Positions 1 to 13,154 of a stretch of 41,022 nt of DNA are shown here, piece after piece (within the stretch, counting starts at the first letter, position 1; each line of letters begins with the position of its first letter). Below the pieces are notes generated by a model. The model did not search any database. It was not told where the DNA came from and saw nothing but the letters and a program-made list of their open reading frames with translations. Both the position numbers and the translations under genes were made by a program. This DNA comes from Saprospiraceae bacterium (lineage in GTDB: Bacteria; Bacteroidota; Bacteroidia; Chitinophagales; Saprospiraceae): NCBI GenBank assembly GCA_020436785.1, contig JAGQXC010000374.1:1-41022 (forward strand), written 5' to 3'.

Positions 1-1036
1 ATACGTTCATTTTGTAAAATGCTCTCCACTTCTCTCTTTCCACTTCATTAAGCGGAATGATGTCTGCGGCAATGCTGCGAGTGGTTGGTTCGTATTTTTT
101 CTGAAATTCCTCAGGCAGTTCAAACGTCGCAAAGTAGAACCGGTGCAAGACACCTTCACTGGTGGTGCCATCGGGAAATTCAATATTGACAATGTCTCCC
201 TCGTGGAGTTTTTTCAGATCTTTTTGATCGTAAAATGCCTTGATAAAAAGATTACTTGGTTTATGAATGGACATGACGGTCTCACCCTCCACAGCGACCT
301 CATAATTCTCCTTCATGATCTGGGTGATGGTACCACGTATCGGGCTAATGTAGGGCTTCAACTGGCGTCGCCATTGATTCACTTCAGATTGATTGTCCGC
401 CACGTACAATGCCCTGATGTTGATCTCCTGCTGGTCCAGCCAATCCAGATATTGGCGCTGGAGACTAATTTCTTTTTGAATGCTCAGGATCTGTCCGTTG
501 TATTCGATGTCCCGGTGGCTGTACATATCCAGTTTATCCGCAGAATAAATGTCAAGCATGATCTCCTGTTTGACCCGTTTGGTCTCCGATGAATTGAGCT
601 GGGCCATTTTCTCAAATTGTTTCAGGTCTATTTGCAACAATTCAATTTTGCGGCGGGTGGAAAGCCGGTCCTGATCGATCCACTGGGTACTCGGAGTCTT
701 TACCGTTTGATTATTGACCTGAACAAACTGGGTCAGATCCCGGTCGAGGTACCAAAAGAGGGTATCTCCCAGCCTGATGGTGTCCCCCTCCTGTTTAAGC
801 AATTCGATGACCTGGATGTTGGAGGTGAACATAATGTCCAACTTTTTAAACCGCACCTGCCCTTCTCCTTCAACGGTCGTTACCGTTCTCAAGGCATAAA
901 AACCGATGTAGGCGATTCCCATGATGAGAATGGAAAGGTAAAGCAGTCGATCCCAGTTGACCTTGCGTTTCTGTGGTCTGATCTCCTTTAATACCTCGAT
1001 CGGATTATTCCTCCTTTTAAAATCGGTACTCCGCAT
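1..1036 (-). CDS. HlyD-family periplasmic adaptor (membrane fusion protein), 3'-truncated by window edge
   Basis: 345 codons are visible and the reading frame is still open at base 1. The protein starts with a short basic cytoplasmic tail, has one membrane span at about residues 31-49, and then a lipoyl-like half-domain (GEGQVRF...GDTIRLGDTLFWYL). A charged helical hairpin rich in Q/K/E/L follows at about 110-190, then the second half-domain (ISPIRGTITQI...VEGETVMSI) and a beta-barrel segment (FIKAFYDQKDLKKLHEGDIV). This is the order seen in HlyD/EmrA-type adaptors, which join an inner-membrane pump or synthase to an outer-membrane channel. The only in-frame ATG (1036) lies inside the upstream gene, giving a 20 bp overlap and suggesting translational coupling. 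A perfect AAAAGGAGG lies just downstream of that ATG and has no well-placed ATG after it. The partner is almost certainly the outer-membrane-factor-like gene immediately upstream. Confidence 0.85.
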   Translation of the reverse strand, partial: MRSTDFKRRNNPIEVLKEIRPQKRKVNWDRLLYLSILIMGIAYIGFYALRTVTTVEGEGQVRFKKLDIMFTSNIQVIELLKQEGDTIRLGDTLFWYLDRDLTQFVQVNNQTVKTPSTQWIDQDRLSTRRKIELLQIDLKQFEKMAQLNSSETKRVKQEIMLDIYSADKLDMYSHRDIEYNGQILSIQKEISLQRQYLDWLDQQEINIRALYVADNQSEVNQWRRQLKPYISPIRGTITQIMKENYEVAVEGETVMSIHKPSNLFIKAFYDQKDLKKLHEGDIVNIEFPDGTTSEGVLHRFYFATFELPEEFQKKYEPTTRSIAADIIPLNEVEREKWRAFYKMNV

Positions 1037-3074
1037 TGGCGCTAATCGTTTTTTCTTCCAGTTTCATCAAATCTTCCAGGTCATGCAGTGCAATTCGGGG
1101 GTTGTGGAATCGCTGATCCAGTGATTGACAAAACAACTCCAGTTCATAGCGGTCATTAAAATCCTGACAACGGATGGCAATGGTTGTTTTATCAGCCCCC
1201 AGTAAAAATGCTGCTTGTGTTTTACGCTCGATGAAATCGATGTCCTTATGTTCATAGGCCATCAAATACACATGGTTGGCTAATGTGTAAATGGCTTGTA
1301 AAAAATCATCCTGATAGGATAATGGAATGGAAACCGATACCTTATATTTCATGGACAGCCGGTGAATCATTTCGAGATATCGCGCCTGATAGACCGCTTT
1401 GTTTTCCTCCCATTCCTTCAGCGTATGCGGCTCCAGATCCAAATGAATTTCATCTACCGGTAAGTTCATCAGTGCAGGCAACGTCTCAGTAACGGGTTTT
1501 TGGAGCATGCTGTTATTACCTATTAAAAGGCTTACCTGAATGTCATCCTTGAATGCCAGGTCGTGCACTTCCTGAAATTTTTGCATCATATCCTGGCCGG
1601 TGCCGGCAGATACGATGAGTTCACTGATCCGGTTGATTTTTGCATAGTGCACGATGTAGTCCGGGCTTAGATCTTTGAGGGTTGCCGACCATACATACAT
1701 GGCACGGGGACCGGTCTGAGGATTGAATAAGTTGTTAAAATCTTTGGGCTCCAGGTAATCGGTAATGTTCCCCTGGGGCAATTTGGAATGCATCTTTAAC
1801 GCTTTCAGATACAGACTTTGCTGGATATCCAGCAATTCCAGATCGACGGCCAATAATTCATCAAATTTATCGACAATAAACTTCGGAGAATAGCCCGGAT
1901 CTCCGAGGTCTTTTTGCCGCTCGCCACGCGCTATGGCTTGGGCCAATTTGAGTTTATTGTAGTAGAAATGGATAAACTGTTTTAAATCGTACCCGTATTC
2001 ATAATACAGGTTGAGCATTTCATTAGCATCGTTATCAAACCGGGTAATGTATTCAACTTCTTCCAACTTTTTGTCCGCTTCCAGCTTCCGTTTGCGCTCT
2101 TTGGCATTAAAATCCAGAGGGATTTGCATCGACAATCCGGCTGAAATAAAGTCCCGGCTAGACCCTAATAGGGGCTGCCCGGCCAGGAAATTATAACGCA
2201 CGGTACTTTTCAGGCCAACCCGGGAAGACCAATGGGATTGCAGGTCCATGGCTTGAGATTTCCATTTCAGTGCAGATTGCATTAGCGTACTATCGAAATA
2301 GATCTGTTTGATGCGATCAATGTCAATATCGAAGATGGGCAGTTCACCCACCTGGTTTGTTTTCCATCCATTGGGTAAATCCACCTGGTCGATGTAGGTC
2401 TGATAGGTATTCAGGAATAATTCCGCTTCTCCTTTACTGGATAGCAAGGTCAGAACATCCTCCCAATGGATGCGCTTGAGGTAAAACAACTGGAAGGCGA
2501 TGGATATTTGTACATTGAGAAGATCAAGCCGCTTTTTGGTGACTTCGATCTTAGCCTGATTGAAGACGTAAATAATGTAATTGTACTGATACCGGTAATA
2601 ATCATTGTGCCGGTATCGCAATAGATCCAGGGAGTCTGCTTTCCATGATGCCACACTGGCTTGCAATTGTTTTTTGTGGGAAAGCATTCCGTCCCGCAGC
2701 AAATTCCAATCCACACCGACCTGCCCGCGACTGCGATAATAAAGTCCATCCTCCAGGTCAAATACCGGATTCGCGAAATTCTGTTGCCAGGCAGTTGTCA
2801 ATTGAAGACCCAAGTCTTTTTTTAACGCTGCATTCCGAGCCGAATATTGCTGCTGACGGGCGACGTCGGACACCTCGGCTAATGAGTCTATATCATAAAT
2901 TTTGTGGAGAAAATCCGTTTCCTGTGCAAAGTGATTGGTCAGGGCAATATCTTCCAGATAGGAGGTAACCAGAGCGTCGAGATGTTGTGCAATGAACTGG
3001 ACATCCTGCGCTATGATGACCTTACCCGTAAACAGGAAGACCGCTAACCATATGCTAACGAAATTGAATTTCAT
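1017..3074 (-). CDS. Outer-membrane-factor (TolC-like) protein fused to a C-terminal GH18-like TIM barrel
   Basis: Positions are numbered from the upstream ATG at 3098. I prefer the ATG at 3074 (residue 9), because it begins a typical signal peptide ending near VIIAQ. Residues ~35-450 are long helices with two beta-hairpin-like segments (~121-137 and ~316-330), each followed by a Lys/Arg-rich helix. This is the two-repeat layout of TolC/OEP proteins. Residues ~465-680 read as eight beta/alpha units: MYVWSATL, SELIVSAG, IQVSLLIG, VDEIHLDLEP, KVSVSIPL, VYLMAYEH, KTTIAIRC and RIALHDL. The fourth carries DEIHLDLE (549-556), close to the GH18 signature DxxDxDxE with the second Asp replaced by His. 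The sixth carries MAYE, like the GH18 MxYD. A hydrolase joined to an outer-membrane channel and followed by an HlyD adaptor suggests polysaccharide export with trimming. The fold and function are inferred. A non-catalytic sugar-binding barrel is the alternative. Confidence 0.7.
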   Translation of the reverse strand: MKFNFVSIWLAVFLFTGKVIIAQDVQFIAQHLDALVTSYLEDIALTNHFAQETDFLHKIYDIDSLAEVSDVARQQQYSARNAALKKDLGLQLTTAWQQNFANPVFDLEDGLYYRSRGQVGVDWNLLRDGMLSHKKQLQASVASWKADSLDLLRYRHNDYYRYQYNYIIYVFNQAKIEVTKKRLDLLNVQISIAFQLFYLKRIHWEDVLTLLSSKGEAELFLNTYQTYIDQVDLPNGWKTNQVGELPIFDIDIDRIKQIYFDSTLMQSALKWKSQAMDLQSHWSSRVGLKSTVRYNFLAGQPLLGSSRDFISAGLSMQIPLDFNAKERKRKLEADKKLEEVEYITRFDNDANEMLNLYYEYGYDLKQFIHFYYNKLKLAQAIARGERQKDLGDPGYSPKFIVDKFDELLAVDLELLDIQQSLYLKALKMHSKLPQGNITDYLEPKDFNNLFNPQTGPRAMYVWSATLKDLSPDYIVHYAKINRISELIVSAGTGQDMMQKFQEVHDLAFKDDIQVSLLIGNNSMLQKPVTETLPALMNLPVDEIHLDLEPHTLKEWEENKAVYQARYLEMIHRLSMKYKVSVSIPLSYQDDFLQAIYTLANHVYLMAYEHKDIDFIERKTQAAFLLGADKTTIAIRCQDFNDRYELELFCQSLDQRFHNPRIALHDLEDLMKLEEKTISANAEYRF

Positions 3075-3112
3075 ATACCTATACCTATAATTATACATTC
3101 AAAAAATGCGCC

Positions 3113-6956: not shown

Positions 6957-7847
6957 ATGACAATGCTCAGTATCTGCATTCCCATCTACCGGTATTCGGT
7001 CCGTCCTCTGATCCAGGCTCTGCAAAAAGAAATCACCGGATTCCGGTTGCCCTGTCAGCTGGTATGTGCGGACGATGGATCGGACGATGACACCTTATCC
7101 CGCAATGCATTCCTGGAAGAAGATCCAACCATCCATTACGACCTGTTACCGGCTAATATCGGACGTGCGGCCATTCGCAATCATTTGGCCCGGCAAAGCA
7201 AGTACCCTTTCTTGCTGTTTATGGATGCCGACGTAATGCCCGTCCATCCCGATTTCATCAGAAAATACCTGAGCAGCCTCGATCCTGGCGCCCTTCTTTA
7301 CGGCGGCACAACCTATTTCAGCCAACCTCCGTCGGATCCGGCGAAACGTTTTCATTGGCGGTATGGGAAAGCTAAAGAAGAAGTGCCTGTTTCCCGGCGC
7401 AATCAACAGGAATACCGTACCTTTAAAACCAATAATTTTGTCATTCCAAAGGCCATCGTGGAAAAACATCCTCTGGACGAGCAATTACAAGGGTATGGGC
7501 ACGAAGATTCACTATTGGCCCGCGAATGTGCCCTATCCGGAATACCGATCCGGCATCTGGACAATCCGGTCTTGCACCTCGGACTCGAAGATCAACCGGT
7601 ATTGTTAGCCAAACTGGAGAATTCCCTGGATAATCTTTATGAACTTTACCTGCGCAACGAACTTCCGGATACCCCCCTCCAGGTGGTATTCCGTCCGGGA
7701 CCAGTTCGCTGGTTAAGCGGCCAGCTACGTGCCTTATTGCCCACATTACACCGCAAATTAGCCGCTGAACCGGATATTAACATGGCGCTTCTTGACCTAT
7801 ACAAGCTCCTATATTTGAACCGGCTGCAGGAAAAAGATGCACCTTAA
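6957..7847 (+). CDS. GT2-family glycosyltransferase
   Basis: A 296-residue GT-A-fold glycosyltransferase. The N-terminus MLSICIPIYRYSVRPLIQAL is followed by the nucleotide-binding CADDGSDDDT (38-46), the metal-binding DAD at 90-92, the KTNNFVIPK acceptor region (157-165) and GHED at 181-184, which supplies the catalytic base. There is no membrane span, so it acts in the cytoplasm on a nucleotide sugar; the acceptor is unknown. The second ATG (6963) matches the usual MLSI start equally well. It is divergent from mqnE with only about 60 bp between the likely starts, and its stop overlaps the stop of the convergent TonB receptor by 4 bp. It is a single-gene unit with no other polysaccharide genes adjacent. 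Confidence 0.9.
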   Translation: MTMLSICIPIYRYSVRPLIQALQKEITGFRLPCQLVCADDGSDDDTLSRNAFLEEDPTIHYDLLPANIGRAAIRNHLARQSKYPFLLFMDADVMPVHPDFIRKYLSSLDPGALLYGGTTYFSQPPSDPAKRFHWRYGKAKEEVPVSRRNQQEYRTFKTNNFVIPKAIVEKHPLDEQLQGYGHEDSLLARECALSGIPIRHLDNPVLHLGLEDQPVLLAKLENSLDNLYELYLRNELPDTPLQVVFRPGPVRWLSGQLRALLPTLHRKLAAEPDINMALLDLYKLLYLNRLQEKDAP

Positions 7848-10261
7848 ATCCCGATGATCAACCCGATGGTGGGCAAAACCTGCCCGGTCGCATCATTAAT
7901 CGATTTCAGCAAATACCGCTGCTCGGCATAAGGAGCATCCGGATTGACAATGACCGGTGGCCCGACCGGAAGATTGTCGGAATCCAGAGGACGGTCCAGA
8001 AGTAATTGATCCCGGCCCACCGCGTTGCCAAATATATTTTGGACGTCGAGATAAAGATTCAGCGACCATTTAGCAAAATACCATTGCTTATCCAAACGCA
8101 TATCCAATGTATTAATCGGATCATAACGCAGGGTGTTGATCCTGGTATAATCCAGAATCCCGCTGTTATTACGGTCCCAATTGGCCACCAGACTGGAGGC
8201 TTCGGAGAAAGGTGTATAGGGAATACCGGACTGGAAGCGCCACCGCAGTCCAACTTCCCAGTTCCGGGAAAATTTTTTTCCTCCGGTCAGGTTAATGATG
8301 TGACGGGAATCCCAGGAAGAAGGTGCATAGTTACCATCGCCATTGGTGAAGATGCTTTTACCAAAAGTATAGGCCAATATGCCATACCATCCTTTGTAAA
8401 ACCGCTGCTGCAACAAAAGTTCCAGTCCATAACTTTTGCCATCGCTGTTGGGCAGCGCAGGTTCGTTGCCGATGATCCCAAAATCTCCCCCGATGTTTGC
8501 CAGAGAAATCTGATCCCTGAGCAGCAGCGGATAATTTGCGTATTTCTTGTAAAATCCTTCCAGGGTAATCTTCGTGTGCGCGTTCAGGTTGTATTCGAAG
8601 CCACTCACTACGTGCGTGTTCCGGATGTATTTTATCGAAGGCCGGTTCACCAGCTCCGCACCGGATCGGTAACCCAAAAGGGTATAAGGCGGTAACTGAT
8701 AATAGATACCGGTATTGGCATTCCAAAACAAAGATTTGGACAACCCTACCGACAGGGCGATCCGGGGAGATAATTGTTGGAAGGGGTTGGACATCCCAGG
8801 TGCATAGGTGTTGCCATCCATACGCACTCCCCCACTCAACGTGATGCGGTCATTGCGCCAGCTTCGGGAAATCTGGGAAAACAATGCATATTTGGAAAAG
8901 CCCAGATCACTTTGGTAATTGATGTCCTCCGGACCGGAGCTGGTGTAGATCTTATTGAAGGTATTGTTATTGTACTTGACGTATTCATAACCGCCACCTA
9001 CGTTTAATTTCCAGTCTCCGGTACGCAACGTGTGTTCAAAACGCAATTTATTTTCGATCTCCTGGCTATGATAGCGGATGATGAGATTTTCTACCGAACT
9101 TTCGTCGTTATTCCGGTATTTCTCGAACCGATTGTCCAGCATATTGCGGGACAGGACCCAGGTCGAATAACCTTGCTTGCCAAAATGCTTATACACCAGT
9201 CCATTCGTATAATTCCACTGAGTCTGGACCGGCAGAACCTGCAATAAAAATTGTTGCTGTTCGGTCTCATTGGCATCCAGGTTCAGTTTAAAATCATCGA
9301 TCGCACCCAGGCCTACAAAATAGATTTCATTCTTGCTGTTGATTTTGTGTTTGACCTTAGCCTGAAAATCCGAATAAATGGGCAAGAAAGGCAATTGAAG
9401 GGCTTTAAACAAAAACTGTAAATAAGACCTCCTCGCCGATGCAATGAAAGTTGTTTGTTTGTTGATAGGTCCCTCGAGGGTAACGCCAAGATCGCTCGCC
9501 CCCACCGTTGATGTAAAGCCCAACCGATCTGACCGGCCATCTTTTTGCTTAAACTCAAACAAGGAACTAAGCATATTCCCACGGTTAGCCGGAAAGGCAC
9601 TGGAATAAAAATTTACTTCCCGGATGAAATCCACATTGATGATGCCGGCTGGGCCTCCCGATGCACCCTGCGTTGCAAAGTGATTGATGTTAGGCACTTC
9701 CACATCATCGAGATAGAAACGGTTTTCATTGGGTGCTCCACCCCGGATAATCAGGTCATTGCGGAATGAAACCGTCGAGGTAACTCCCGGCAAACTCTGA
9801 ATCACCCGGGATATGTCGCGGTTTCCGCCCGGGCTGCGCTTGATTTCTTCGGTTCCAATGGTTCTCAGAGAGACCGGACTCTCTTCCGTTTTGTTGAAAG
9901 GACTGGCCTGAACGACGACTTCCTGTAAATTTTCAGTGTTGGCATCCAGATAAATCTCGATGTTCGCCGGTTGGGAATTTGTGACTTTAAGTTGATAAAT
10001 GTACTTCTCCTTGTATCCCAGAAAACTGACCTTGAGATCATAGATTCCCGGTTCCAAACCGGCGATCGTAAATACCCCTTCTTCATCGGTGATCTCTCCC
10101 CGTCCGGTTCCTTCGACCTGTACCGTTGCAAACGGGATCGGATCCTTATTAAGTGCATCCTGAACGGTACCTTTTATAATTCCGTTTTGGCCGGATAGCA
10201 ATCCCAGGTAGCTGACAAAGAAAACAAGAAACCAGAACAATTTGTACGTCCCCATAGTCAT
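7844..10261 (-). CDS. TonB-dependent receptor with carboxypeptidase-regulatory-like N-domain
   Basis: An 805-residue outer-membrane receptor. The signal peptide ends near LLSGQ (about residue 25). An Ig-like regulatory domain follows (GIIKGTVQDALNKDPIPFA to EIYLD, ~28-107) and then the plug: EEIKRSPGGNRDISRVIQSL, LIIRGGAPNENRFYLDDVEV and a second half ending FEFKQKDG (~120-240). The remainder is beta-barrel with alternating aromatic strands. The C-terminus TIGLIIGI lacks the usual terminal Phe but ends in a hydrophobic strand. Its ligand is unknown. No SusD partner is adjacent, which argues against a classical Sus glycan system. It is divergent from a second receptor, with 76 bp between the two starts. 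Confidence 0.92.
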   Translation of the reverse strand: MTMGTYKLFWFLVFFVSYLGLLSGQNGIIKGTVQDALNKDPIPFATVQVEGTGRGEITDEEGVFTIAGLEPGIYDLKVSFLGYKEKYIYQLKVTNSQPANIEIYLDANTENLQEVVVQASPFNKTEESPVSLRTIGTEEIKRSPGGNRDISRVIQSLPGVTSTVSFRNDLIIRGGAPNENRFYLDDVEVPNINHFATQGASGGPAGIINVDFIREVNFYSSAFPANRGNMLSSLFEFKQKDGRSDRLGFTSTVGASDLGVTLEGPINKQTTFIASARRSYLQFLFKALQLPFLPIYSDFQAKVKHKINSKNEIYFVGLGAIDDFKLNLDANETEQQQFLLQVLPVQTQWNYTNGLVYKHFGKQGYSTWVLSRNMLDNRFEKYRNNDESSVENLIIRYHSQEIENKLRFEHTLRTGDWKLNVGGGYEYVKYNNNTFNKIYTSSGPEDINYQSDLGFSKYALFSQISRSWRNDRITLSGGVRMDGNTYAPGMSNPFQQLSPRIALSVGLSKSLFWNANTGIYYQLPPYTLLGYRSGAELVNRPSIKYIRNTHVVSGFEYNLNAHTKITLEGFYKKYANYPLLLRDQISLANIGGDFGIIGNEPALPNSDGKSYGLELLLQQRFYKGWYGILAYTFGKSIFTNGDGNYAPSSWDSRHIINLTGGKKFSRNWEVGLRWRFQSGIPYTPFSEASSLVANWDRNNSGILDYTRINTLRYDPINTLDMRLDKQWYFAKWSLNLYLDVQNIFGNAVGRDQLLLDRPLDSDNLPVGPPVIVNPDAPYAEQRYLLKSINDATGQVLPTIGLIIGI

Positions 10262-10337
10262 TAAGCGGTTAACAATCCATGAAATGAAAATTTACATATT
10301 TTGTTTACCTTAAGTTCAGTTTTTAAACTCCGGGTTA

Positions 10338-13154
10338 ATGAAGAAGCTAGGGTTCATCGCTTGGTGCATGATGGTACCACTATTGTACACTGCCCAGGTC
10401 ACGATCAAAGGGGGGGTATTCGACAAAAACAACGGCGACCCGCTGATTGGTGCCAACATTGTACTAAAAGGCACCTCTACGGGAACCACTGCTGATTTTG
10501 ACGGATCTTTTGAATTAAAGGTCGATGCCATTCCCGTTACAGTCATCATTTCCTATACCGGCTATGAATCATTGGAACTTGTCATTACCGAGGCCTCGGA
10601 AAAACTAACGATTGAATTGGAGGAAACCAGCTTGACCATGGCTACCATCGAGGTACGCGGACAACGGATTTCCGACAAACAAAAGGCATCCCCGCTTACG
10701 GTTGAGTCCATGGATTTGCTGGCCATCAAACAAACCCCATCGGATAATTTTTACGATGGCCTGGGCACGCTCAAAGGGGTGGATCTTACCGCCGCCAGTC
10801 TTGGTTTTAAAATCATCAATACCCGGGGATTCAATTCGACAAGTCCGGTCCGGTCCCTCCAGATTATTGATGGCGTCGACAATCAGGCGCCTGGCTTGAA
10901 TTTTTCACTGGGTAACTTCCTGGGCACCAGCGACCTGGATGTCCTCAAAGTGGATTTAATCCAGGGAGCCAGTTCCGCATTTTATGGCCCAAACGCCTTT
11001 AATGGGGTCATTAGCATGACCACCAAGGATCCCTTTTATCAAAAGGGACTTTCCGCATCCGTAAAAGGAGGCGAAAGGGCGCTTTTTGAAGGGGCGGTAC
11101 GGTGGGCGGACGCCCTAAAAAACAAAGCGGGCAAAGATGTATTTGGTTACAAATTCAATTTCTTCTACCTGCGTGCCGACGATTGGTTGGCTAACAATTA
11201 CGATCCCATTTCCAACTCGGTGAGTTCAGCAAACAATCCGGGACGATACGATGCGGTGAACATCTATGGGGATGAGTATCAGGCAGGTATGGACCTGTCC
11301 ACCGCCCCACCCTGGCGGTTTCCGGGATTAGGCGTATGGTACCGCACCGGTTACCGGGAAGAAGACCTCGTCGATTACAATACGCGAAACATCAAGGCCA
11401 ATGCCGCATTTCACTTCCGTACCAACCCGGCCATGGAAGCCGAATCACCGGAATTGATCCTTTCCGGCAATTTTGGCAACGGTACAACGGTCTATCAGGG
11501 GGACAACCGGTTCAGCCTGAAAAATATTTTGTTTTTCCAGAGCCGACTCGAATTCCGCAAACGCGATAAGTATTTTATCCGGGCCTACCTGACCCAGGAC
11601 GATGCCGGCAATTCCTACGACCCTTATTTTACCGCCTTGCGCCTGCAGGAACGGGCAAAATCAAACTTTGACTGGGCGTCCGATTACATCCTCTTTTATC
11701 GCAATAATTACGAAAAGAAAGCCAATGAGTTGGGTTATCCCAAACTGCAGACCATCATCAATCCCGATGGCACGTTCAGTTTTTCCTTTGACCAGGCTGC
11801 TGCGGATCTGTGGTTAATGCAATACCACGATTCCTTGGTCACCTGGCATACGAATTCTGAAGCGTATGCCAACACTCGGAATCCTTCCCTGCCATCAGCC
11901 AATACGGATTTTCTACGACCCGGAACACCGGAGTTCGAAGCTGCATTCAATGAGATCACCTCCAAATTGTCCAACACGGATGAAGGAGGTACCCGCTTTT
12001 ACGATCATTCTGCATTGTACCATATCCACGGAGAATACACCTTCAATCCCACCTGGGTAGACCGATGGGTGGTTGGAGCCAATGCCCGGTTGTACACACC
12101 CCAGTCGAAAGGCACGATCTTTTACGATACGGCAGACATCAAGATTACCAATTTTGAATATGGCGTGTACACCGGCGCTGAAAAACATTTTAACGACAAT
12201 ACCTGGACATTGAGCGCTACGGTTCGCCTGGATAAAAACCAGAATTTTGATTTTCTGGTCTCACCGGCCGCCTCGGTCGTCTACAAACCGCGCGCAAACA
12301 ATTACCTGAGGATCAGTTTTTCCTCAGCCATCCGCAACCCGACTCTTACGGACCAATACCTGAATCTGAACGTTGGCCGGGCCACCCTGGCCGGAAACCT
12401 GAATGGCGTTGAGGATCTGATCACCCTGAGTTCATTTAGTGAATACCGTAAAAAGCTGGATATCAAAGAATTGGTTTATTTTAACATCGACCCCGTACGT
12501 CCGGAACGGGTTAAAACGGCAGAACTGGGTTACCGCACCACCCTCTGGAACAAGTTGTATGTCGATGCCGGCTATTATTACAGCATTTACAACGACTTCC
12601 TGGGATTCAACATCGGCCTGGATGCCACTTTCGATCCCAACTCCGGGCTACCTTCGCGCATCTCCGCTTACCGGTATGCTGCCAATTCGACCAATCAGGT
12701 CACTACCCAGGGGGCGAACATTGGCCTCAATTACTATTTCGCCGAATATTTTGCCGTCAATGGAAATTACTCATGGAATCGACTGAACAAAACATTTGAA
12801 GACGATCCGATCATACCTGCATTCAACACTCCGGAACATAAATTCAATGTTGGACTTTCCGGAAGAGATGTCATTTGGAAACTCGGAAACCGTGCTTTGA
12901 AAAACTTTGGATTCAATATCAACTACAAGTGGATTCAGGGTTTTGTGTTTGAAGGATCGCCCCAGTTTACCGGCATCATACCCGACTACGATCTTCTGGA
13001 TGCACAGGTCAACTGGAGCATCCCAAAACTGGATTTAACGGTCAAGCTTGGAGCCTCTAACTTATTGAACAACAAACAATTCCAAACATATGGCGGTCCA
13101 CGCATAGGTAGACTTGCATATATTTCGTTTCTGTATGAAAACAAGAAAAATTAA
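10338..13154 (+). CDS. TonB-dependent receptor, larger type, with CarboxypepD_reg-like domain
   Basis: A 938-residue receptor. The signal peptide (MKKLGFIAWCMMVPLLYTAQ) is followed by the regulatory domain VTIKGGVFDKNNGDPLIGAN to LTIELEETSL (~21-98). The plug runs from VESMDLLAIKQTPSDNFYDG through NTRGFNSTSPVRSLQIIDGV to GASSAFYGPNAFNGVISMTT. The barrel then contains many Asn/Tyr-rich strands and the ILNN-type ending LGASNLLNNKQFQTYGGPR. The plug resembles those of the SusC-like/FecA-like Bacteroidota receptors, but no SusD follows. The next gene, 61 bp downstream in the same direction, encodes a T9SS-exported hydrolase-like protein. The two may form a receptor plus surface protein unit. Substrate not known. 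Confidence 0.92.
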   Translation: MKKLGFIAWCMMVPLLYTAQVTIKGGVFDKNNGDPLIGANIVLKGTSTGTTADFDGSFELKVDAIPVTVIISYTGYESLELVITEASEKLTIELEETSLTMATIEVRGQRISDKQKASPLTVESMDLLAIKQTPSDNFYDGLGTLKGVDLTAASLGFKIINTRGFNSTSPVRSLQIIDGVDNQAPGLNFSLGNFLGTSDLDVLKVDLIQGASSAFYGPNAFNGVISMTTKDPFYQKGLSASVKGGERALFEGAVRWADALKNKAGKDVFGYKFNFFYLRADDWLANNYDPISNSVSSANNPGRYDAVNIYGDEYQAGMDLSTAPPWRFPGLGVWYRTGYREEDLVDYNTRNIKANAAFHFRTNPAMEAESPELILSGNFGNGTTVYQGDNRFSLKNILFFQSRLEFRKRDKYFIRAYLTQDDAGNSYDPYFTALRLQERAKSNFDWASDYILFYRNNYEKKANELGYPKLQTIINPDGTFSFSFDQAAADLWLMQYHDSLVTWHTNSEAYANTRNPSLPSANTDFLRPGTPEFEAAFNEITSKLSNTDEGGTRFYDHSALYHIHGEYTFNPTWVDRWVVGANARLYTPQSKGTIFYDTADIKITNFEYGVYTGAEKHFNDNTWTLSATVRLDKNQNFDFLVSPAASVVYKPRANNYLRISFSSAIRNPTLTDQYLNLNVGRATLAGNLNGVEDLITLSSFSEYRKKLDIKELVYFNIDPVRPERVKTAELGYRTTLWNKLYVDAGYYYSIYNDFLGFNIGLDATFDPNSGLPSRISAYRYAANSTNQVTTQGANIGLNYYFAEYFAVNGNYSWNRLNKTFEDDPIIPAFNTPEHKFNVGLSGRDVIWKLGNRALKNFGFNINYKWIQGFVFEGSPQFTGIIPDYDLLDAQVNWSIPKLDLTVKLGASNLLNNKQFQTYGGPRIGRLAYISFLYENKKN

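What the first reader, a model, noticed from the sequence alone, without database searches (positions are those of the whole stretch)
1..3098. Outer-membrane factor fused to a GH18-like barrel, paired with an HlyD adaptor
The N-terminal two-repeat TolC-like region is followed in the same chain by eight beta/alpha units. The fourth strand reads DEIHLDLE (like GH18 DxxDxDxE) and the sixth MAYE (like MxYD). The HlyD adaptor overlaps by 20 bp. Tripartite exporters do not usually carry a glycosidase in the channel subunit. This could be a compact secretion device that exports and cuts a beta-linked glycan (chitin- or PNAG-like, or cellulose-like). Known systems such as PgaB or PelA keep the hydrolase separate from the channel.
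Basis: partly seen in the sequence, partly recalled or inferred. Interest (0 to 1): 0.75.

Follow-up and report, generated by a model that had tools for sequence, protein, structure and literature searches.

The report
Sugar-polymer export channel with built-in cutter
A bacterial outer-membrane export channel has a chitinase-like barrel built into the same protein and sits in a four-gene set with a sugar-polymer synthase, so it probably trims a secreted polysaccharide as it leaves the cell; the same arrangement recurs in dozens of environmental bacteria.

The parts
1017..3098 (-). Outer-membrane factor fused to a GH18-like barrel, 693 aa
1755..3098 (-). Signal-peptide-like start (by eye) and TolC/CusC-type outer-membrane factor part (residues 1-448)
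   Evidence: OEP profile; strand pairs and long helices; Foldseek CusC, SilC, TolC E 4e-12 to 3e-11
1071..1715 (-). GH18-like (beta/alpha)8 barrel, residues about 462-676
1431..1445 (-). Strand-4 motif HLDLE, residues 552-556; E556 aligns with the GH18 catalytic Glu, D554 with the Asp two before it
1251..1262 (-). Strand-6 motif MAYE, residues 613-616; M613 and Y615 invariant, E616 variable
2..1036 (-). HlyD-family periplasmic adaptor, cut by the window end; its last 9 residues and stop lie on contig C425 of the same genome
1..127 (.). Exact 127-base overlap with the end of contig G000:C425 (L021), which carries the next two genes: TackOD1 protein (L021:8076-9506, minus) and GT2 synthase (L021:6778-8082, minus)

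Best explanation
This is a four-gene synthase-dependent exopolysaccharide exporter. An inner-membrane GT2 synthase of the processive type polymerises a beta-linked sugar, most likely an N-acetylhexosamine. A TackOD1 protein, presumably cytosolic, controls it (in Balneolota relatives this protein has a receiver domain and a weak GGDEF match; in the window's own protein Pfam sees only TackOD1). The HlyD adaptor bridges the periplasm to a TolC-type trimeric channel. Each channel subunit ends in a GH18-like barrel that would sit on the periplasmic side near the channel entrance (that TolC termini are periplasmic is recalled) and cuts or trims the polymer during export, with E556 as acid and D554 and Y615 holding the acetamido group. 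Shown by computation: the genes, their order, the two folds, homology to GH18, and residue invariance. Inferred: assembly, topology, catalysis, polymer and regulation.
For: Operon completed through a 127-base contig overlap. GT2: best NCBIfam PgaC_IcaA E 2.8e-48, then an XrtG-associated glycosyltransferase and NodC; by phmmer its best solved relatives include chondroitin and hyaluronan synthases; QxxRW in 29 of 30 listed synthases of the named loci, the miss being cut by a contig end. TackOD1 E 2e-50. Same gene order in the 33 named loci: HlyD next in 33, TackOD1 in 32, GT2 in 30; the missing genes fall beyond contig ends. GH18 homology and fold; PF00704 hits for 7 of 34 barrel members, best 5.9e-7. 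H552, D554, E556, S590, M613, Y615, D646, D673 unchanged in 33 of 33 aligned rows and in 7 of 7 profile-found rows, three of the seven being contigs already among the 33. In G249, which keeps the barrel weakly (38 bits), H552, D554, E556, M613 and Y615 are all replaced. In 395 genomes of the phylum sample all 8 genomes with a strong barrel match are among the 12 with TackOD1.
Against: The window's own barrel has no Pfam hit at E up to 1; among the 34 members there are also chance-level hits to other families, such as Imm9 in 6 (best 0.00017) and Spherulin4 in 1 (0.0002). Foldseek's ranking of the barrel is a mix of TIM barrels headed by a designed protein. The GH18 motif is incomplete: first acid not conserved, His at the Asp two before D554, and no conserved Trp at strand 8. 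E616 varies (E in 28 of 33, and in 2 of 7 profile-found rows). GT2 scores far below the PgaC cut-off (165 against 422 bits). No deacetylase is in the cassette, unlike Pga. Seven loci have the system without a barrel, so a barrel is not a universal part of it. pTM of the full model is 0.56, so the place of the barrel relative to the channel is not settled.
Confidence: 0.68

Rival explanations
1. The barrel is a non-catalytic sugar-binding guide (lectin-like pseudoenzyme, like chitinase-like proteins) that threads the polymer into the channel rather than cutting it.
For: Incomplete GH18 motif and no strand-8 Trp; several high fold matches are described as chitinase-like proteins; E616 is variable.
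Against: The acid Glu, the neighbouring Asp and the Tyr that GH18 chemistry uses (PMC9323625, passages) are invariant in 40 of 40 rows, and all change together where the barrel is degenerate (G249).
Confidence: 0.2
2. The barrel is a transglycosylase or a release or length-control enzyme acting on the growing chain rather than a general hydrolase.
For: GH18 chitinases may transglycosylate (PMC9323625, passages); a fixed place on the channel suits end-processing (inference).
Against: Nothing here separates it from hydrolysis.
Confidence: 0.15
3. The barrel is a metal-dependent hydrolase or deacetylase using H552, D554, H558, H672 and D673.
For: H552, D554 and D673 are invariant; H558 and H672 nearly so.
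Against: Profile and VIA-align matches point to GH18 and GH153; hits to metal-dependent barrels were weak, Amidohydro_2 0.1 and AP_endonuc_2 0.027; the Glu and Tyr positions fit GH18 chemistry.
Confidence: 0.06
4. The outer-membrane factor and HlyD adaptor belong to an ordinary efflux or type 1 secretion pump and the glycan genes are neighbours by chance.
For: HlyD matches EmrA-type adaptors weakly (E 6.7e-7, 28.6 of 390.8 bits).
Against: The only genes shared by most loci are the fusion, HlyD, TackOD1 and GT2, mostly with gaps under 40 bases or overlaps; none of nine neighbours scanned with Pfam is a pump. Not every neighbour was scanned.
Confidence: 0.03

Closest known systems
Pga system of PNAG export (PgaC synthase, PgaB with hydrolase GH153, PgaA porin)
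   Different: TolC-type channel and HlyD adaptor instead of the TPR-porin PgaA; hydrolase fused to the channel; no deacetylase in the protein; GH18-type Asp-x-Glu instead of PgaB's D474; TackOD1 protein. That PgaD is the c-di-GMP partner in Pga is recalled.
BcsZ-BcsC fusion of Zymomonas (cellulose)
   Different: A fusion within the Bcs cellulose system, not of a TolC-type channel with a GH18-like barrel (that BcsZ is GH8 and BcsC a TPR-porin is recalled).
XcsAB-TolC model of cyanobacterial cellulose export
   Same: GT2 synthase, HlyD adaptor and TolC channel as one exporter (PMC12430437, passages).
   Different: XcsA has a PilZ domain; the endoglucanase is a separate gene; the parts are scattered in T. 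vulcanus; no TackOD1 is mentioned in the passages seen.
BgsBA mixed-linkage beta-glucan system of rhizobia
   Same: HlyD-like protein next to a GT2 synthase (PMC9495663, passages).
   Different: Two genes; c-di-GMP binds the synthase C-terminus; no hydrolase or channel gene in the bicistronic operon.
GH18 chitinases and relatives such as the spore enzyme SleL
   Different: Incomplete DxxDxDxE, no conserved strand-8 Trp, and the barrel is part of a channel protein.

Membership tests
TolC-type outer-membrane factor (PF02321) | OEP profile above curated cut-off | tested here: met
   29.6 bits against 22
TolC-type outer-membrane factor (PF02321) | Fold: two repeats of strand pair plus long helices, match to solved channels | tested here: met
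TolC-type outer-membrane factor (PF02321) | Trimeric channel in the outer membrane | not testable with these tools
   no multimer prediction or experiment
GH18 | (beta/alpha)8 barrel and profile-level homology | tested here: met
GH18 | Pfam PF00704 above its cut-off for the window barrel | tested here: not met
   no hit at E up to 1 for the window domain; 7 of 34 members hit at E up to 1
GH18 | Catalytic motif DxxDxDxE on strand 4 | tested here: not met
   last D and E kept in 40 of 40 rows; His at the second D; first position variable
GH18 | Tyr of MxYD on strand 6 | tested here: met
   M613 and Y615 invariant in 40 of 40; the D position is E, Q, G, K or D
GH18 | Trp platform at strand 8 | tested here: not met
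   no conserved Trp near residues 668-673; the conserved pair is HD; requirement from PMC9323625, passages
GH18 | Hydrolysis of N-acetylhexosamine linkages | not testable with these tools
   needs an enzyme assay
GH153 (PgaB hydrolase) | Polysaccharide deacetylase domain in the same protein | tested here: not met
   the only Pfam hit on the window protein at E up to 10 is OEP
GH153 (PgaB hydrolase) | PgaB-like fold | tested here: met
PNAG synthase PgaC/IcaA (TIGR03937) | Equivalog cut-off 422.3 bits | tested here: not met
   164.9 bits for the window operon's GT2
Processive GT2 synthases | DDGS, DAD and QxxRW motifs (recalled as marks of the group) | tested here: met
   29 of 29 complete synthases; the window operon's own GT2 read by eye
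TackOD1 (PF18551) | Profile above cut-off | tested here: met
   171.4 bits against 32
HlyD adaptors (PF13437) | Profile above cut-off | tested here: met
   27.0 bits against 22.2
XcsAB-TolC cellulose system | PilZ domain in the synthase | tested here: not met
   only glycosyltransferase and chitin-synthase families on the window operon's GT2 at E up to 0.1

The most novel reading that the evidence does not exclude
A distinct class of exopolysaccharide machine in which a trimeric TolC-type channel carries three built-in GH18-like enzymes at its periplasmic mouth and processes a nascent aminosugar polymer passed to it by a GT2-HlyD pair under a TackOD1 regulator. The barrel forms a new GH family related to GH18. 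One sub-lineage took up a nucleotide-sugar dehydrogenase, changed its polymer, and lost the enzyme from the channel.
Probability: 0.45. Interest if true: 0.75.

Novelty: new variant of a known kind. Interest (0 to 1): 0.62.

Why it matters
For cyanobacteria the link from a glycan synthase through HlyD to a TolC channel is a model that lacks experimental validation (PMC12430437, passages). Here synthase, adaptor, channel and hydrolase are fixed in one cassette, and hydrolase and channel are one chain, so their ratio is set by the gene. That makes it testable whether trimming happens at the channel mouth. It also gives the TackOD1 domain, whose function PMC5847659 calls obscure (passages), a genetic context, and points to an unassigned GH18-related family. 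Named strains carry it (Fodinibius roseus DSM 21986, Gracilimonas amylolytica LA399, Rhodohalobacter sulfatireducens WB101).

Tried and rejected
A first scan of genome contigs with the whole window protein gave 14 pattern stretches and no relative; the C-terminal alignment then worked. Plasmid search at E up to 1: no match. phmmer of the window protein against PDB sequences: nothing significant, best E 1.8. Profile A4 against PDB sequences, 8 hits: 10yv (named putative GH97, Cellulomonas fimi) E 2.6e-6, covering the LDVEP motif, no paper on it seen in one search; six short chains, five of them named as complement inhibitor or inhibitor and one hypothetical, E 0.027-0.032, taken as chance; YaaH 4s3k at E 0.54.

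The idea that barrel-less systems hold the barrel as a separate gene was checked for the protein of about 650 aa in two of the three loci that have it (L078, L079): Pfam shows DUF4114 in both and a weak LVIVD match in one, no glycosidase. L055 (Ruminococcaceae) is taken as a false positive: no hit to the four profiles. Rows dropped before counts: G634 and G756 (E 0.004 and 0.006) before the count of 8; G378 (L015), an OMF match of 251 plus 115 aa near a contig end with no HlyD, TackOD1 or GT2 hit in the stretch, before the count of 8 barrel-less loci. No deacetylase was seen, but only nine neighbour proteins were scanned with Pfam.

Literature searches on the fusion, on HlyD with synthases, and on TackOD1 showed no description of this cassette in the listings of the held open-access library; subscription papers and preprints were not searched.

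Full report

Is it GH18-related by sequence? Of 34 barrel domains, 7 hit PF00704 (best 5.9e-7); the window's own does not, and weaker hits to unrelated families occur too, such as Imm9 in 6 members (best 0.00017). An alignment of 14 GH18 domains from related genomes (14 of the 21 matches listed) against the 34-row barrel alignment gives hhalign E 7.4e-9, probability 95.8, with GIHLDVEP over GIDiDwEy and YlMAYE over nlMsYD. Thirty column shuffles of the GH18 alignment reached at most 23.0 against 66.6; the reversed alignment, GT2 and HlyD gave 17.4, 14.3 and 19.0. Against full membership: the first acid of DxxDxDxE is variable, the second is His, and the strand-8 Trp described as conserved in GH18 (PMC9323625, passages) is absent. 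In that paper the DxE Asp and the strand-6 Tyr position the acetamido group and the Glu is the acid; all three are kept here.

The rest of the operon. The window is the start of contig G000:C80. Its first 127 bases are identical to the end of contig C425 of the same genome, which continues with the last 9 residues and stop of HlyD, a 476-aa TackOD1 protein and a 434-aa GT2. TackOD1 E 2e-50 and Glycos_transf_2 E 5e-25. The GT2's best NCBIfam model is PgaC_IcaA (E 2.8e-48, 165 of the 422 bits required), then an XrtG-associated glycosyltransferase and NodC; CelA is far weaker, 1.7e-4. Its best solved relatives by phmmer are chondroitin synthase and other GT2 enzymes, hyaluronan synthases among them. 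So an N-acetylhexosamine polymer is the better guess, not a proof. Pfam sees only TackOD1 (and a sub-threshold DUF7836) in the window operon's TackOD1 protein; in the Balneolota relative L054 it also has a receiver domain (E 6e-24) and a weak GGDEF match (0.005).

How general it is. The barrel alignment found 34 loci in genome contigs. One (L055) is a false positive. In the other 33 the barrel lies in the same frame as the OMF, followed in order by HlyD (33), TackOD1 (32) and GT2 (30); the missing genes fall beyond contig ends. L032 is the same contig as L014 (G068). The search patterns were HLD[LV]EPHT and MAYEHKD, so the conservation of those letters is partly chosen. Outside the search patterns, Y468, W470, S590, D646 and D673 are unchanged in 33 of 33 and 7 of 7. 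In the phylum sample 8 of 395 genomes have a strong barrel match and 12 of 395 have TackOD1; all 8 lie in the 12 (hypergeometric 3.6e-14, genomes not independent). In an order sample the whole protein matched 7 of 396 genomes, the window's own included.

Where the barrel is missing. Eight loci have the four gene types without a working barrel: L010, L012, L013 and L078-L081 show no hit to the barrel profile, and L008 (G249) keeps a weak one (38 bits) with H552V, D554Y, E556H, M613R and Y615E. Their gene order varies: in L078-L080 a protein of about 650 aa and the dehydrogenase lie between HlyD and TackOD1, in L081 the dehydrogenase alone, and in L012 the TackOD1-GT2 pair lies apart on the other strand. 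Genome G599 holds both kinds, L082 with a barrel and L081 without. In the GT2 tree these 8 of 41 rows form one side of one branch (support 100/97), so one change explains the data; the root is unknown, but the remnant in G249 suggests loss. A UDP-sugar dehydrogenase is found in 5 of these 8 loci and in 0 of the 33 barrel loci, 8 of which are under 15 kb. That fits a change of polymer together with loss of the enzyme, but it is one clade and so one event at best.

Reading. The most economical account is an exopolysaccharide exporter: GT2 synthase, HlyD bridge, TolC-type channel, and a GH18-like enzyme fixed to the channel. GT2 with HlyD is known from BgsBA (PMC9495663, passages) and proposed with TolC for XcsAB (PMC12430437, passages). 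Hydrolase fused to a pore is reported for BcsZC in Zymomonas (PMC7112194, passages). PgaB shows a GH domain processing polymer (PMC5933820, passages), and the PgaA TPR region raises its activity (PMC9384988, abstract). The combination seen here, with TackOD1, was not seen in the searches listed under Tried and rejected. TackOD1 was described with its function obscure (PMC5847659, passages).

What is not shown. No assay, no proof of expression, no multimer model, no polymer. The barrel may be a guide rather than a cutter. Its periplasmic place rests on recalled TolC topology.

Noticed in passing
L078-L080 (between HlyD and dehydrogenase); L049, L052, L054, L082-L085, L087 (near GT2): A lipoprotein-like gene (by eye) recurs with the cassette, mostly in Balneolota; the long form ends in DUF4114, and two short forms scanned had no Pfam hit.
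   Followed up: partly
L014:740-3409 minus; L046:14519-17581 plus: Protein with CotH kinase, lamin-tail and Por_Secre_tail domains directly after GT2; related genes cluster in 5 of 33 loci.
   Followed up: partly
L078-L081, before the OMF: Two small regulator genes (receiver-like by eye, no profile search) precede the barrel-less OMF in all four loci.
   Followed up: no
L049, L051-L054: In Balneolota a short gene of about 110-120 aa that matches the TackOD1-protein profile weakly (42-55 bits) precedes the full TackOD1 gene; the one scanned had no Pfam hit.
   Followed up: no
L042: One Nitrospirae MAG carries the whole cassette; transfer or binning error was not separated.
   Followed up: no
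window 7844-13154: Two TonB-dependent receptor-type genes on opposite strands.
   Followed up: no
PDB 10yv (Cellulomonas fimi): A solved stand-alone protein named putative GH97 shares the LDVEP motif with the barrel family.
   Followed up: partly
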